Below the pieces are notes generated by a model. The model saw only the letters and a program-made list of their open reading frames with translations, was not told the origin of the DNA and ran no database searches. A stretch of 23,638 nt of DNA from a virus: positions 1-23,638 of IMG/VR virus record IMGVR_UViG_3300017989_000445. The stretch is one strand, 5' to 3'. Each line of letters opens with the position of its first letter. The stretch's first letter is position 1. The position numbers were made by a program, and so were the translations under genes. Shown here one piece after another: positions 4,213 to 10,458 of the stretch.

Positions 4213-6528
4213 ATGGCTACATCAATCTTTTTTGATGGTCGATTGATTGCAACACCAGGTGCGTACAGTCAAATAGATGCATCGGGTTTGGAATCGATTG
4301 GCTTAGGTGCATCAGGTATAGTCGCTGTGCTAGGGCAGGCCGAAGGTGGCAAGCCAGCATCAGAGATGTCGGAGGTTGCAGACTTTATAAGCATAAACAA
4401 GCCAGCGGCTGGAAGGGAAGCATTCAGAAGTGGAGATTTACGAGAAGTCGTAGATATGCTCTTCGCCCCTTCCAAGGATGCAGACATTATCGCTGGAGCT
4501 CAAGAAGTCATCGCAATGAAGACAAATCCAGCGACTCAAAGTACCGCAGTACTGGCAAACGCCTACGGAAACATTCTGGATCTGACCAGTGTAGACTATG
4601 GAGCCTTCACTAGCCAGGTGAATGTGGAAGTTGGCGATGGTACGAACCAAGGGAAGCTCATCACAGTCACTTTCGAAGATGAAGTGAAGACAGTCGATGA
4701 CCTTGGTGGAGACATCTTCTTCAATCTCAAGTACACCAAACCGACCAATGGATGGGATGTCATCACTGCAGAAGTGGAGAATGGTGGAGCAGTCGTCTGT
4801 GATGCCACTCGAGACAATGCAGGTCTGGACGGTGACATTACCGCTCAAATGCCAACTACTGGCAAAGTAAGAGTAAAGAGTGCCGATTCAGGTGATACTA
4901 CTCAACAGGTAGTTGTCTACGGTCTGGATGCCAGCGATGCTGCAATCAGAGAAACTCTCAACTTGAACGGTACTGCAGATGTGGATGGTCAACTGGACTT
5001 CAAATACGTCTACGGTGCAAGAGTCATTGGCACTACAGCTGGCATAGTCACTCTTTCCGATACCGTACTTCCTACTACGGTACTGACAATTGCAGCTGGA
5101 GCAAACCAGGTAAAAGGTCTCGCTCAATGTGCTGCGATGTACGTTGGAGCTGGAATCGTTTCTGCAGTAGCAGATGGAGCTACCACGAAGAATCTGATTC
5201 TCATCGGTAAGTCCACCACTGGTGCTGTTCAAATCGAGAAAATCGTTTTGACTGGTGCTACCCAAGTGGATGGAGTCGGTACATGGTCGGAGCTCGAGTT
5301 TATCGCTCTAGGCGATGTGGAAGCAGCCAGGACACTGACTTTCAGTGCAGAAGCAGCCAGGACAGTGCCTGCTACTCACAGTACGCTCCAGAAGGTGTCT
5401 GACTACTTCTCAGCTCGGTACTCTGCAGCTGCATCTGGTGGATTCGTCTTCACCATGGTAACAGCCAGGACCACATTTGACCCTGCAGACCTTGATATAA
5501 CCACTGGAGCAGGTGGAGCAGTGAGCTGTTTGGATCCTGCAAATCCAGCTTTCTATGCAGATGTACAGGTCATCAAAGAGTGGTTTGATAGCTCGAGCGA
5601 ATACATCACTGCAGCTAAATCTTCTGGTGGAGTAGGTGGAGCTCCAGACAACACCACTGCTCCAGTCTACCTGGCAGGTGGTGAAGAAGGAACAACTACC
5701 AGTACAAACTGGCAAGATGCACTGAATCTCTTGAAAAAGAAGAGAGTCAACAGTGTAGTTGTTCTAACTGGAGATCCAGCTGTACATGCGATGCTCGATG
5801 CACACTGCGCGTACATGTGCGGAATAGGACGGAATGAGCGAGATGGCTTCGTAGGACTTCTCAATACTGCTCTTACCAATGTTCCTACCAAGACAGAAAT
5901 CAAATCTCAGATTGTGGACATCAATTCCAGACACATTCGAGCGTTTGGACAGGCCATTGAACGCTACAACACATCTGGAGAAAGAGCAGAATTCCTGCCA
6001 TATTTCCAGGCAGCTGTAGCAGCTGGTATGCAGGCAGGCTCATCGGTGGGAACAGCTCTCACCTACAAATTCGCAAATACTCTTTCTCTCAGACAAGATT
6101 CTACCTGGAATCCAACAGATGACACTGAAGAGATGATTGCAGCTGGTCTGTGTTTCATGGAGAATGTTGAAGGTGTAGGAAGGCGAGTGGTGAGAAACAT
6201 CACAACTCATTTGACTTCCAATAACCTGGCATACATCGAAGGTTCAGTGAATGAAGCAGTAAATTACTCGGTGTACACCTTCAGAAACAGCATGGAATTC
6301 GCAGTTGGAAAGAAAGGCTTCGCTGGTACTGTGAATGCAGCTACTGGAATTGCGGTCAACATTTTAGGACTTCTGGTAGGTGAGAACGTAATCACTGCAT
6401 TCAGAAGCCTTAGCATGGAATTGTTAACTGATGTATTGGAGGTATCACTCGAAATTGCTCCAGTTCTTCCGATTAACTTCGTGAAAAATACGATACATCT
6501 TGTGACCATTCCACAGACCACGGAATAA
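4213..6528 (+). CDS. Tail sheath protein
   Basis: A 771-aa protein with a strong ribosome binding site (GAGGAG at 4201-4206). The N-terminus follows the sheath pattern: a short strand, PGAYSQID, ASGIVAVLGQAEGG, and then a block around ADFISINKPAAGREAF. The C-terminus has RRVVRNITTHLT-N, the dense helix-strand region around YIEGSVNEAVNYSV, FRNSMEF, and the final strands LEVSLEIAPVLPINFV. These match the contracting core of phage sheath proteins (T4 gp18 class). It forms the outer tube that shortens and drives the inner tube through the cell envelope. It is longer than T4 gp18 (659 aa) because of two related beta domains inserted at residues about 216-297 and 319-375. It is followed by the tube gene, as expected. 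GAAGCAGCCAGGACA is repeated in frame 30 bases apart (5320, 5350). Confidence 0.93.
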   Translation: MATSIFFDGRLIATPGAYSQIDASGLESIGLGASGIVAVLGQAEGGKPASEMSEVADFISINKPAAGREAFRSGDLREVVDMLFAPSKDADIIAGAQEVIAMKTNPATQSTAVLANAYGNILDLTSVDYGAFTSQVNVEVGDGTNQGKLITVTFEDEVKTVDDLGGDIFFNLKYTKPTNGWDVITAEVENGGAVVCDATRDNAGLDGDITAQMPTTGKVRVKSADSGDTTQQVVVYGLDASDAAIRETLNLNGTADVDGQLDFKYVYGARVIGTTAGIVTLSDTVLPTTVLTIAAGANQVKGLAQCAAMYVGAGIVSAVADGATTKNLILIGKSTTGAVQIEKIVLTGATQVDGVGTWSELEFIALGDVEAARTLTFSAEAARTVPATHSTLQKVSDYFSARYSAAASGGFVFTMVTARTTFDPADLDITTGAGGAVSCLDPANPAFYADVQVIKEWFDSSSEYITAAKSSGGVGGAPDNTTAPVYLAGGEEGTTTSTNWQDALNLLKKKRVNSVVVLTGDPAVHAMLDAHCAYMCGIGRNERDGFVGLLNTALTNVPTKTEIKSQIVDINSRHIRAFGQAIERYNTSGERAEFLPYFQAAVAAGMQAGSSVGTALTYKFANTLSLRQDSTWNPTDDTEEMIAAGLCFMENVEGVGRRVVRNITTHLTSNNLAYIEGSVNEAVNYSVYTFRNSMEFAVGKKGFAGTVNAATGIAVNILGLLVGENVITAFRSLSMELLTDVLEVSLEIAPVLPINFVKNTIHLVTIPQTTE
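5320..5364 (+). repeat. In-frame 15-bp direct repeat in the sheath gene
   Basis: GAAGCAGCCAGGACA occurs at 5320-5334 and again at 5350-5364, a 30-base period that keeps the reading frame and repeats the residues EAART. It lies at the end of the second inserted beta domain of the sheath protein. It looks like a small local duplication. Confidence 0.85.
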
Positions 6529-6541
6529 GTGAGGTGATTCG

Positions 6542-7015
6542 ATGACACTAGAACGAGGTCAAAAAGGCAAACTTTTCACTGGAGCAAGAGCTCGGTTTTC
6601 TGTGGAAGGTAAAATCGTAGGATATGCGAGAGATGTTACTGGCTCCGAAGAAATCGCCTATGAAGCCATCGAGGTATTGGATAATGTTCGAGTTGAGGAA
6701 CATGTACCAGTAGGATATTCAGTGAGACTGACTGCTTCCATGTTTAGAATCGTAGGAAGCACTCTCAAATCGAATGGTCTTTTCCCTACGAATGGTCCAG
6801 ATCCACAGACTCATCTGTTCAACATCCTTGTGAATGGTGAGCTCAATGCACAGATAGAAGACGTGAGAACAGGTAAAATCATTGCACAATTCACTGAAGT
6901 GAAAGTGGCTTCCCACAACTTCTCGATTTCGGCACGTGGTGTCGTAGGTGAAGATGCGGAATTCGTAGCCATTGCCATGCAAGACGAATCTGAAATCACT
7001 GGCGTAATCATCTAG
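6542..7015 (+). CDS. Tail tube protein
   Basis: A 157-aa protein with a strong ribosome binding site (GAGGTGAT at 6531-6538). It lies immediately after the sheath, the invariant order in myoviruses. The sequence has the features of tube subunits: an N-terminal GKLFTGARARFSVEGK strand pair, YARDVTGSEEIAYE, the strand-rich middle with LFNILVNGELNAQIED, and the final VASHNFSISARGVVGEDAEF-AIAMQDE. The protein stacks in hexameric rings to form the rigid inner tube through which DNA passes. The length is normal for the family (about 140-170 aa). The stop at 7013-7015 is followed by the longest noncoding stretch of the window, so its messenger may end or be processed there. Confidence 0.9.
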   Translation: MTLERGQKGKLFTGARARFSVEGKIVGYARDVTGSEEIAYEAIEVLDNVRVEEHVPVGYSVRLTASMFRIVGSTLKSNGLFPTNGPDPQTHLFNILVNGELNAQIEDVRTGKIIAQFTEVKVASHNFSISARGVVGEDAEFVAIAMQDESEITGVII

Positions 7016-7040
7016 CTCTTTCTTTCTGTACTTTTCATAA

Positions 7041-7073
7041 ATCCTAGAGATAGGGTCCACTGGATGCTTTTTT
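7041..7073 (+). terminator. Possible terminator or processing hairpin after the tube gene
   Basis: ATCCTA-GAGA-TAGGGT (7041-7056) can fold into a 6-bp stem (one G-U pair) with a GNRA-type loop GAGA. A run of six T follows at 7068-7073, but 11 bases separate stem and run, so it is not a textbook intrinsic terminator. CACTGGAT (7058-7065) can also pair with ATCCAGTG (7113-7120), giving an alternative fold. Placement behind the highly used tube gene makes a terminator or mRNA-stability element plausible. Confidence 0.3.
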
Positions 7074-7103
7074 CATTCGGGTATCCAGGGGTTTTCTGAG
7101 AGG

Positions 7104-7132
7104 TTGCCTGCAATCCAGTGCACTGGCATATT
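7104..7132 (+). promoter_or_regulatory. Possible sigma70-like promoter with a 12-bp palindrome in the spacer
   Basis: TTGCCT (7104-7109) and CATATT (7127-7132) are separated by 17 bases; each matches 4 of 6 bases of the -35 and -10 consensus. The spacer contains the perfect palindrome CCAGTGCACTGG (7115-7126), an operator-like element. Transcription would begin near 7139, about 24 bases before the chaperone ATG. Both boxes are weak, so this is a candidate only. Confidence 0.3.
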
Positions 7133-7162
7133 GAGAGCAGGATACAAAAAAGGAGAGCGAAA

Positions 7163-7657
7163 ATGCCAAATCCAGAAGAAGTAATCAAAGATTTCGAACC
7201 AGAACATATAACTAAGCAACTTCCCAAAAGTACTAAAGAAATGAAGGAAGAAATTGCTGAAAATATGGATACGAAACCAAAGGAGAAACATCCAAAGGAC
7301 GATCCAAGGTCACAAAAGGAATACACGTTTCAATTCCGATACGAAAGCCCAAATGGAAAAGTTTGGACTGGACAATTTACCAACAAAATCCTATCGATTG
7401 CTGAACAACAGGCAGTAGGTGTAGCTCGAGCAAAGTTTGGTGGTGGAATGCCATACGAATCCTTGGATCCACTTTCCAGGGAAATCAATATGATTACTGC
7501 TCACATGTCTTTTTCGCTGATAAAATGGCCAGATTGGGCAGAAGACTTGAGAGCCATACTCGAGATTCCGTTATTACAAGCTCTCTACACGGAGGTGGCC
7601 TCTCACGAGGCTACATTTCTCGGATTTACGAAACCTCAAGAAGATAGCAAAGGTTAG
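7163..7657 (+). CDS. Tail assembly chaperone, short form
   Basis: This is a 164-aa protein. I chose ATG 7163 over an in-frame ATG at 7118 because AAAGGAG lies 8 bases upstream of it, while the earlier ATG has no ribosome binding site and sits within the palindrome. The N-terminus is charged (residues 1-50). The core has FQFRYESPNGKVWTGQFTNKI, then AVGVARAKFGGG, a helix SREINMITAHMSFSLI, and WPDWAEDL. Position between tube and tape measure, and the presence of a downstream overlapping frame, identify it as the equivalent of lambda gpG-type chaperones, which bind the tape measure and recruit tube subunits. These proteins act in assembly and are absent from the mature virion. Confidence 0.78.
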   Translation: MPNPEEVIKDFEPEHITKQLPKSTKEMKEEIAENMDTKPKEKHPKDDPRSQKEYTFQFRYESPNGKVWTGQFTNKILSIAEQQAVGVARAKFGGGMPYESLDPLSREINMITAHMSFSLIKWPDWAEDLRAILEIPLLQALYTEVASHEATFLGFTKPQEDSKG

Positions 7658-7991
7658 TTTTGAACACGGACTGGCAACTATAAAAAAATGGTGGTTCAAG
7701 AAATACGGTTTACCAGCGAACCACGAGCTCTTTCGGAGTCAGTCGATTGCCGAACTGAATCTGGAGATGCTCGAAGACATGTTTTTGAGAAGAGAAGAGA
7801 TAGAAAAAGAACTGGAAACAGCTAGTGGAGATACTTACAACAATCTCATGATGGAATTGAATCACATAAACAGCACTGTGGAAGAGAAAGAGAAGGTAAG
7901 AGCTGTATCAGATCCACTAATCGACAAATGGGAAGAGCAATTCATGTCTGGAGAGACACCAGACTTGGAAGAAGGATTACCCAGTGCCTAA
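7163..7991 (+). CDS. Tail assembly chaperone, long form by programmed +1 (or -2) frameshift
   Basis: The frame +1 to the chaperone gene is open from 7551 (after TGA 7548-7550) to TAA 7989-7991, and so overlaps the first ORF by 107 bases. It has no ATG, GTG or TTG before ATG 7767, which lacks a good ribosome binding site. Yet protein-like sequence continues upstream of that ATG: KIAKVSFEHGL, KKWWFKKYGLPANHELF, SIAELNLEMLEDMFLRREEI. The W-x-KKYGLP...S-x-ELNLEMLED pattern resembles the second chaperone of myoviruses (gpGT-like C-terminus), ending in an acidic tail. A shift anywhere in the overlap gives a 275-aa fusion. Tape-measure translation then begins at GTG 7984, overlapping the end. The frame assignment is solid; the slip site itself is inferred. 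Confidence 0.68.
7595..7654 (+). promoter_or_regulatory. Candidate frameshift region: hairpin plus slip sites
   Basis: GTGGCCTC (7595-7602) pairs with GAGGCTAC (7607-7614) across the loop TCAC, an 8-bp stem with one G-U pair. It ends one base before codon TTT (7616-7618), followed by C. tRNA-Phe could slip from UUU to UUC and enter the +1 frame. A second option is AAA-G at 7649-7652 just before GGT TAG, where tRNA-Lys could move to AAG. GGAGG at 7591-7595 is Shine-Dalgarno-like and partly inside the stem. Which site is used cannot be told from sequence. Confidence 0.42.
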
Positions 7992-10458
7992 AGACGTTAG
8001 AACCAATGTCATCGTATCTGCAGAAACCAAGGGATTCGATTCTGCGAGGCAAAAAGTCTCTAAGTTCAGCGATGAAGGAGCCAAAGGAGTCACTGCTCAA
8101 GCTAAAGGATTCGAAGATGCCAAAAATAGCAGTGCTGCTTACAGTAAATCTCTTGAAAAAATTAATAAGATGGACTTCAAAGATGTCCAGAAACAGATAG
8201 GTGGCTTAAAAGACCATTTGGGTGATCTGCACAAGCAGCAACTAGCAGTAACCATGGCCATGTCGGAGATGGACGACCAGGCCAGTCCAGCTTACAAAAA
8301 GCTTAAAGATGACCTCAAATCGATTCAGCAAGAGTCGAAAACCGCTGAAAGACAAATCAATAGTTTGAACAAAGCCTTTGCTACACAAGCAAAGGAAGCT
8401 GAAAGACTCGCAGAAGCTTCCAGGCAGGGTCGAGGTGCCTTCATTCAAGGTCTGGCACAAGGTGGACTACCCTTTCCTGCTCCTTTCCTTCAAAGGGGAC
8501 CAGGGATGGGTAGGCAGGTAGCTGGAATGGCAGTAGGAAGAGCTCTTACAGGTGGAGCTCGAGGTGCTCAATTAGCAGGTGGAGCCATGTTTGGTGGTGT
8601 AGGTGGCATGGCTCAAGCGATTGGTTCTATTCCATTGGTAGGTGGTATGCTTGGTGGCCAATTCCAAGCAGCTGCACAATATGCTCAACAAAATATCCAG
8701 TGGCAACAAACGAAGCTCGGTATGGCCCCATATACCGAAAGAGTCGGAGATATTAGAGAGCGAGCAACATACCTGGCAGAAAGAAGTGCAAAACTAAGAA
8801 GGGCAAGATCCAGAAAAGAAGAAGCAGAAAGGGAAATCGAAGAAGCAGAACGAAACCGTGACATCCTTATGAAAGCTGCTCAATACCAGCATGCGCGTAA
8901 AAGGCAAGAAGAAGCACTGGCAGCTGCAGAAAAGGAAGGTGTTTTACCTTATGCAGCTGAAAAGGGTTCACAGGTAGTATCTAGCACATTCGATAGCATA
9001 AAAAGAGGGATTGGTGAGATTGTAAATCCATTCGGTGAAGTTGTCGATGCTGGCATAGATTTACTCAAAAAAGGAGATATTGGTGGTTTCATCACTGGCA
9101 AACACGGGGATGTAGCTGCTCAAAAAGCTATAGAAGAAAGAGAGCTCACCAGAACTACCAAAGGCGAATTAAAGAGCATCAAAGAGCTGGATGCATTACG
9201 AGAAAAGAACTTCGATAAGCTCGAGAAGAAAAGGAAAGAGGCAAGAAAAGCAGACTTGCAATATCGAAAGGAATTAGCCACTGCCAGTAAAAAATATGCA
9301 GCTGGTCCATTCCGAGACATTGGCCAAATGGGTGTCTCTTTAATGGGTGTATCCAAACCAGAAGCTGCACAAATCTATGGAGAGATGATGCAGGCAGGTG
9401 GTGGATACAAGCAGGAAGCTATCGAGCAAGGCATGATAGGTTCTGCCTTTGCAGCCAGGACAATGTTTGGAGTGCAGCCAGGGGTAGCTGGAGCATTTTT
9501 AGGAGCTGGAAGACGTGGTGGTGTTGTAGGAGCTCGAGGTGCTCAAGGTGGTGGGGGTGCTGCTTTCAGGGAAGCACTGGCAGAAGGATTGAGACTTGGA
9601 CTGGAAGGCTCCGAGCTCAATCGATACATGCAGGAAACAGCTGCAGGCATCCAGAATTTCGAAGCCACTGGTATCGAGATAAACACTCGAAGCATCACTT
9701 CACTGGCAAGAGACCTAACTGACACTGGAATAGCTGGTACTCGAGCAGCTAGGATGGCCAGGGGAATCACTGGTGGAATACAACAAGTAGGACAAAGGGG
9801 GATCCAAAGCGGTCTAGACTTATACATGCTTCAATCCATTGGTGGATATAGAGGTGGTGGAGCTACTCAATATCGAGAAGCTCGAGCTCGGATGGAAAGC
9901 CTGGCAGGTACTGTACAAGCAGAAGGAGTAGGTGCAATTGCTGGTGAATCACAAATAAGTGAATCACTACGAGGTATCATGAGAATGGCAGGTGGAGACC
10001 CTGGAGCTCAAGCAGAACTACTCCAGACCGTATTGAGACAAATGGGTGTGCAGACTTCAGTGAAAGAGACTGACTGGCTCGCACGTAGCCTTCGAGGTGA
10101 AGAAGCTACTCCAGAACAATTGTCGATGATTCAGCAAGAGAGAAGAAGGCAGGCTCTAGGAGCAGCTGAAGCAAAAGAGACTGGTCTTGGTTCTGAAGCA
10201 GACATGATGCAAGCAGCTAAAGACGTGGTGAGTGGATATGCTCCAGGTGCCAAAGCACAAGCCAGTTTAGCCAATAAACAGATTGCAGTAGGACGTAGAA
10301 TGGTCGGAGTGGTCAAGCAATTGGAAAACATGGCACTCGATGCCACTGATGCTATGTCCAAAGCTTTTGTGCCTTCACTCAGTAAAGCAACTACTGAACT
10401 TGAAAACATGGCAAAGAATCTTCCTACTCTTCTAGAGTACATAAAATTAGTCGGTTGA
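7984..10458 (+). CDS. Tail tape measure protein
   Basis: An 824-aa protein starting at GTG 7984, with AGAAGGA about 9 bases upstream; it overlaps the chaperone frame by 8 bases. The N-terminal part (residues about 1-140) is long charged helix with KFSDEGAKGV and coiled-coil heptads around YKKLKDDLKSIQQESKTAER. Residues about 150-230 are Gly/Ala-rich with several short repeats (GGARGAQ). More coiled coil follows around residues 265-320 and 380-435, then a second Gly/Ala-rich and helical half. There is no clear transmembrane helix, peptidase or transglycosylase motif. Such proteins fill the tube and set tail length. With the rule of about 1.5 angstrom per residue, a tail near 120 nm is expected (inference). 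Confidence 0.9.
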   Translation: MPKDVRTNVIVSAETKGFDSARQKVSKFSDEGAKGVTAQAKGFEDAKNSSAAYSKSLEKINKMDFKDVQKQIGGLKDHLGDLHKQQLAVTMAMSEMDDQASPAYKKLKDDLKSIQQESKTAERQINSLNKAFATQAKEAERLAEASRQGRGAFIQGLAQGGLPFPAPFLQRGPGMGRQVAGMAVGRALTGGARGAQLAGGAMFGGVGGMAQAIGSIPLVGGMLGGQFQAAAQYAQQNIQWQQTKLGMAPYTERVGDIRERATYLAERSAKLRRARSRKEEAEREIEEAERNRDILMKAAQYQHARKRQEEALAAAEKEGVLPYAAEKGSQVVSSTFDSIKRGIGEIVNPFGEVVDAGIDLLKKGDIGGFITGKHGDVAAQKAIEERELTRTTKGELKSIKELDALREKNFDKLEKKRKEARKADLQYRKELATASKKYAAGPFRDIGQMGVSLMGVSKPEAAQIYGEMMQAGGGYKQEAIEQGMIGSAFAARTMFGVQPGVAGAFLGAGRRGGVVGARGAQGGGGAAFREALAEGLRLGLEGSELNRYMQETAAGIQNFEATGIEINTRSITSLARDLTDTGIAGTRAARMARGITGGIQQVGQRGIQSGLDLYMLQSIGGYRGGGATQYREARARMESLAGTVQAEGVGAIAGESQISESLRGIMRMAGGDPGAQAELLQTVLRQMGVQTSVKETDWLARSLRGEEATPEQLSMIQQERRRQALGAAEAKETGLGSEADMMQAAKDVVSGYAPGAKAQASLANKQIAVGRRMVGVVKQLENMALDATDAMSKAFVPSLSKATTELENMAKNLPTLLEYIKLVG
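8554..9546 (+). repeat. Dispersed 18-bp exact repeat in the tape measure gene
   Basis: GGAGCTCGAGGTGCTCAA is present at 8554-8571 and again at 9529-9546, in the same frame, encoding GARGAQ within Gly-rich segments. It contains GAGCTC and CTCGAG. It could mark an old internal duplication or only shared codon choice for a Gly-rich motif. Confidence 0.7.

What the first reader, a model, noticed from the sequence alone, without database searches (positions are those of the whole stretch)
7551..7991. Programmed +1 (or -2) frameshift joining two tail-chaperone frames, with a hairpin at the likely slip site
Seen: the frame +1 to the chaperone gene is open for 107 bases before its stop and continues to 7991, without any ATG/GTG/TTG start before 7767, while protein-like sequence (KKWWFKKYGLPANHELF) lies upstream of that ATG. 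Known: chaperone pairs between tube and tape measure are often joined by frameshifting, in most phages by -1. Here -1 does not fit; +1 or -2 does. Seen: an 8-bp stem at 7595-7614 ends one base before TTT-C, and AAA-G lies just before the GGT TAG end. The upstream hairpin is an unusual arrangement, since stimulators generally lie downstream. Which codon slips is inference.
Basis: partly seen in the sequence, partly recalled or inferred. Interest (0 to 1): 0.8.

Follow-up and report, generated by a model that had tools for sequence, protein, structure and literature searches.

The report
Phage tail-chaperone +1 ribosomal frameshift

Summary
Between tail tube and tape measure, ORF A (7163-7657) is overlapped by a +1-frame ORF (open 7551-7991) with no ATG/GTG/TTG before 7767. 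Homologues of both halves lie in the same +1 arrangement in every relative that could be tested: 26 sequence clusters of IMG/VR contigs and 20 cultured phages, SPO1 among them. It is therefore neither a sequencing error nor chance. The possible shift region intersects only between -14 and +12 nt of one codon, window 7616-7618. That codon is TTT in 26/26 clusters, although TTT is a minority Phe codon there, and C or T follows. In the cultured phages it is TTT-CGN in 20/20; in five of them only 14 nt are left for the shift. Best explanation: P-site tRNA-Phe slips from UUU to UUC (+1), making a 275-aa fusion beside the 164-aa protein, as lambda G/GT does by -1. A -2 shift is excluded by re-pairing in 25 of 26 clusters. 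The AAAG site and the 8-bp stem are not conserved. A Shine-Dalgarno-like GGAGGT at 7591-7596 is. SPO1 is already annotated with +1 slippage, and UUU_Ynn and TTT-CGn shifts are published. New member of a known kind; no fusion protein has been shown.

The parts
7163..7657 (+). ORF A, zero-frame tail assembly chaperone (N-terminal, 164 aa)
   Evidence: phrog_25000 tail assembly chaperone E=7e-4 for the window protein; 11 of 14 family members match it, best 6e-8; AlphaFold2 mean pLDDT 82, ordered region ends at residue 152 = the slip Phe
7551..7991 (+). +1-frame open stretch (chaperone B); translated part inferred to be 7620-7991
   Evidence: homologues in the same +1 offset in all relatives with both halves
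7616..7619 (+). inferred slip site TTT-C (UUU in P site, CUC in A site)
   Evidence: TTT in 26/26 clusters, next base C 22 / T 4; 20/20 cultured phages TTT-CGN
7591..7596 (+). conserved Shine-Dalgarno-like GGAGGT, 19 nt before the TTT; possible stimulator (inferred)
   Evidence: Glu codon GAG 25/25 against 11/21 at another conserved Glu; preceding codon varies in amino acid but ends in G in 20/21; absent from SPO1 and L071
7595..7614 (+).
7649..7652 (+).
6542..7015 (+). tail tube protein gene (context)
   Evidence: phrog_985 virion structural protein E=4e-11; same position as SPO1 gp10.1
7984..10458 (+). tape measure protein gene, GTG start overlapping the end of chaperone B (context)
   Evidence: position, and homology to the same gene in relatives; SPO1 gp11.2 counterpart by gene order

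Best explanation
The tail assembly chaperone is made in two forms from one mRNA. Most ribosomes read ORF A (7163-7657) to its TAG and give a 164-aa protein. A minority, with tRNA-Phe in the P site on UUU (7616-7618) and CUC waiting in the A site, slip forward one base so that tRNA-Phe re-pairs with UUC (7617-7619). They go on in the +1 frame from 7620 to 7991 and give a 275-aa fusion. By analogy with lambda gpG/gpGT, the short form would coat the tape measure and the long form would recruit tube subunits. Shown here: the conserved +1 gene arrangement, the confinement of the shift to about 26 nt, the invariant TTT-Y, the chaperone family match. Inferred: that the slip happens, its efficiency, the tRNA mechanism, the role of the two products.
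For: +1 offset in every relative with both halves. Shift confined to -14..+12 nt of TTT over 26 clusters, and to -5..+9 nt in A9, ISP, AG20, EF24C and Romulus. TTT 26/26; on 24 clusters, 24/24 against 7/24 at another invariant Phe of the same protein, Fisher p=1.6e-7 (with TTT TTC cases read). The +1 motif WWxxKYxLP starts exactly 73 nt after TTT in 23/26 clusters although the zero-frame stop ranges from +12 to +69. 7/26 clusters, the window included, have no ATG/GTG/TTG in the +1 frame before that motif. Same gene order as SPO1, annotated with +1 slippage. UUU_Ynn is described as especially prone to +1 shifting in bacteria (PMC5009743).
Against: No protein or reporter data. TTT is also constrained by the +1-frame Phe codon, so its conservation alone does not prove slippage. 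The A-site codon here (CUC) is common in the window, 105 of 520 Leu codons, not a stop or a rare codon. No conserved downstream structure was found. The conserved GGAGGT sits 19 nt upstream, further than the known +1 stimulator of prfB (own knowledge).
Confidence: 0.9

Rival explanations
1. Chaperone B is made separately by internal initiation at a near-cognate ACG (7605-7607) in the +1 frame, 8 nt downstream of the GGAGGT Shine-Dalgarno-like sequence.
For: GGAGGT is conserved beyond the protein sequence, its spacing to ACG would suit initiation, and three clusters (L040, L048, L064) have ATG at this position.
Against: The His codon is CAC (ACG in +1) in most clusters although CAT would give ATG (column -10: C 22, T 3); L066/L067 have ACC there. 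+1 residues between the ACG and the TTT are not conserved while those after it are. SPO1 and L071 lack GGAGGT yet keep TTT-C, and six cultured phages open in +1 only 5 nt before TTT, with no start codon there.
Confidence: 0.05
2. The shift is -2 rather than +1 (as in phage Mu), giving the same frame with one extra residue.
For: Reaches the same frame; the Mu tail chaperone uses -2 (PMC3498833).
Against: At TTT a -2 re-pairing of tRNA-Phe is possible only in L039 of 26 clusters; no G-run like Mu's is conserved.
Confidence: 0.02
3. The slip occurs at AAA-G (7649-7652) next to the GGT TAG end.
For: AAA-G allows tRNA-Lys +1 re-pairing close to a stop.
Against: Not present in relatives, and in L064 and L066/L067 the zero frame has already stopped at +15 and +12 nt after TTT.
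Confidence: 0.02
4. A sequencing error, or two independent genes with no fusion.
For: The window is a single metagenomic contig, and such assemblies can carry indels.
Against: Same +1 offset in dozens of independent contigs and 20 cultured phage genomes; the window has no usual start codon before 7767, inside the conserved region.
Confidence: 0.01

Closest known systems
Bacillus phage SPO1 gp10.2-gp11.1 tail assembly chaperone (and Adastra '+1 frameshift product'), Herelleviridae
   Same: Same gene order (sheath, tube, chaperone pair, tape measure), same +1 direction annotated in the record, same TTT-C at the overlap
   Different: A-site codon CGT/CGC instead of CTC; no GGAGGT upstream; no sequence hit between the chaperones themselves by tblastn
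HF1-group halovirus tail chaperone pair, TTT-CGC +1 (PMC7230728)
   Different: Archaeal hosts; CGC in the A site; also unproven
Influenza A PA-X site UCC_UUU_CGU (PMC3498833) and bacterial UUU_Ynn shifts such as YopN-TyeA (PMC5009743)
   Same: UUU_Y P-site slip in the +1 direction
   Different: Unrelated genes; PA-X-like sites prefer CGN in the A site, the window clade mostly has CUC
Lambda gpG/gpGT -1 frameshift and Mu -2 frameshift
   Same: Same functional logic: short and long tail chaperone from one gene before the tape measure (PMC5009743)
   Different: Other direction or step size, and other slip sequences

Membership tests
Frameshifted tail assembly chaperone (G/GT type) | Gene pair between tail tube and tape measure with overlapping frames | tested here: met
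Frameshifted tail assembly chaperone (G/GT type) | N-terminal product belongs to a tail assembly chaperone family | tested here: met
   phrog_25000 and phrog_1038, 11/14 and 6/14 members; weak for the window alone (E=7e-4); no Pfam or PDB fold match
Frameshifted tail assembly chaperone (G/GT type) | Fusion protein produced in infected cells | not testable with these tools
   needs mass spectrometry or a reporter
SPO1-type +1 tail chaperone | +1 offset with TTT-C at the junction | tested here: met
PA-X-like UUU_CGN +1 site | CGN codon in the A site | tested here: not met
   window has CTC; clade: CTC 14, CAC 4, TTC 4, CGC 2, CAT 1, CGA 1
Bacterial UUU_Ynn +1 site | UUU followed by a pyrimidine, in frame | tested here: met
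   26/26 clusters; rule from PMC5009743
Lambda/P2-type -1 chaperone frameshift | second frame at -1 | tested here: not met
Mu-type -2 frameshift | slip site allowing re-pairing two bases upstream | tested here: not met
   possible in 1 of 26 clusters
Structure-stimulated frameshift | conserved stem or pseudoknot next to the slip site | tested here: not met
   upstream stem not conserved; downstream z near 0 in most loci, L010/L011 about -2.4 to -2.9; pseudoknots not searched

The most novel reading that the evidence does not exclude
UUU_Y +1 slippage is the general and ancient decoding rule of the tail chaperone in SPO1-type contractile phages of many hosts, the same tRNA-Phe slip used by influenza PA-X. 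The window's clade is a variant that replaced the CGN A-site codon mostly by CUC and gained a conserved Shine-Dalgarno-like GGAGGU 19 nt upstream that tunes the shift.
Probability: 0.4. Interest if true: 0.6.

Novelty: new member of a known kind. Interest (0 to 1): 0.42.

Why it matters
It corrects gene annotation: the second half is usually missed, given an unlikely start, or misnamed (for example 'RNA polymerase' in AG20 and EF24C). It gives one testable slip site, UUU_Y, for a large set of contractile-tail phages, including those of Staphylococcus, Listeria and Enterococcus. It also offers natural A-site, E-site and Shine-Dalgarno variants for studying how bacterial ribosomes make +1 shifts.

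Tried and rejected
tblastn of ORF A in phage records: no match. Single-sequence scans of viral contigs with each chaperone half: none; solved by anchoring on the sheath and on an alignment. Genome contigs: no relative found, so no host clue. Rfam on the junction region: only sub-threshold matches. PDB by sequence and by fold: nothing convincing. Stem covariation: none. Downstream stimulator structure: none conserved. One search's automatic count of slip codons (20 TTT, 4 TTC) mis-picked the second Phe in TTT TTC cases; one search shows TTT in all. The key SPO1 paper (Stewart 2009), the HSTV-2 papers and Dorscht 2009 are not held, so whether a slip site was already published for SPO1 is unknown.

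Full report
What is there. The window is a 23.6-kb virus fragment (an IMG/VR record) that carries a contractile-tail module: sheath 4213-6528 (phrog_279), tube 6542-7015 (phrog_985), a small ORF A 7163-7657, a +1-frame ORF ending at 7991, a tape measure gene from 7984, then baseplate genes. ORF A matches tail assembly chaperone families weakly by itself (phrog_25000, E=7e-4), but 11 of 14 relatives match the same family, best 6e-8.

Comparative test. Neither chaperone half found relatives alone. The sheath found 26 contigs and an alignment of ORF A's conserved part found 38 loci; neither search used the slip site as a criterion, though the alignment's last few columns include it. Wherever both halves are present, chaperone B is in the +1 frame. 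The 38 loci and the window give 26 groups at about 85% nucleotide identity (24 formed, plus L044 and L062, which its pattern had missed).

Where the shift must be. In each locus the slip has to lie after the last +1-frame stop and before the zero-frame stop. Over the 26 groups the intersection is -14 to +12 nt around one codon, a Phe codon at the end of the conserved H-E-x-x-F. It is TTT in all 26, followed by C in 22 and T in 4. Elsewhere in these loci TTT makes 10-69% of Phe codons, and a second invariant Phe in the same protein is TTT in only 7 of 24 (Fisher p=1.6e-7, which treats clusters as independent). The +1-frame motif WWxxKYxLP begins exactly 73 nt after TTT in 23 of 26, whatever the position of the zero-frame stop. 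In the window this codon is 7616-7618 and the site is ACA TTT CTC GGA. The predicted structure of ORF A is ordered up to residue 152, the slip Phe, and of low confidence after it.

Cultured relatives. SPO1 has the same gene order, and its record already gives gp10.2-gp11.1 as a product of +1 slippage; Adastra likewise. In 20 cultured phages (Herelleviridae of Bacillus, Staphylococcus, Listeria, Enterococcus, Lactobacillus, Brochothrix, Exiguobacterium and Lysinibacillus hosts, and the group of PHB04, Dolphis, ST4, Touem01, fHe-Yen8-01, Mecenats66 and phiT5282EW) the overlap holds TTT-CGN in every case. In A9, ISP, AG20, EF24C and Romulus only 14 nt are available for the shift, for example TCC TTT CGT TAC TAA in ISP. 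The script looks for TTT-C, but in most of these phages it is the only Phe codon in the overlap.

Mechanism. tRNA-Phe reads both UUU and UUC and pairs better with UUC, so a one-base forward slip in the P site costs little; this is the argument made for influenza PA-X (PMC3498833). In bacteria UUU_Ynn is reported as especially prone to +1 shifting even without a stop codon (PMC5009743). -2 re-pairing is possible in only one group. The slip itself, its efficiency and the roles of the two products are inferred.

What is not supported. AAA-G (7649-7652) is absent from relatives. The 8-bp stem is complete only in the window and L020/L057; across 14 distinct sequences 59.8% of cells pair against 59.3% in shuffles. 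No downstream structure is conserved.

What was missed. GGAGGT at 7591-7596 is kept in nearly all of the clade. Its Glu codon is GAG in 25/25 against 11/21 at another conserved Glu, and the variable codon before it ends in G in 20/21. It lies 19 nt before TTT, and SPO1 lacks it. It may stimulate or pause, or could serve internal initiation at ACG (7605), a rival I rate at 0.05.

Novelty. +1 tail chaperones (SPO1), TTT-CGC in HF1 haloviruses (PMC7230728) and UUU_Y shifts are known. The window is a new member, with CTC in the A site and a Shine-Dalgarno-like element as clade features.

Noticed in passing
L083 1394-1987 (AG20) and L084 1331-1906 (EF24C): The +1 half of the chaperone is annotated as 'RNA polymerase beta subunit' / 'putative RNA polymerase', most likely a misannotation.
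   Followed up: partly
window 7591-7596: Shine-Dalgarno-like GGAGGT apparently under selection at the nucleotide level inside ORF A, 19 nt before the slip site.
   Followed up: partly
window 7016-7162: The gap between tube and chaperone genes contains a CCACTGGAT / ATCCAGTG inverted pair seen by eye; Adastra has an annotated terminator at the same place.
   Followed up: no
window 4213-6528: The sheath protein is 771 aa while the matched family profile is 489 positions long, so it seems to carry a large insertion.
   Followed up: no
L028 8239-8607 and L080 1201-1560 (PHB04, Touem01): AAGGAGG lies about 5 nt before TTT-CGN, a spacing like the Shine-Dalgarno stimulator of prfB.
   Followed up: no
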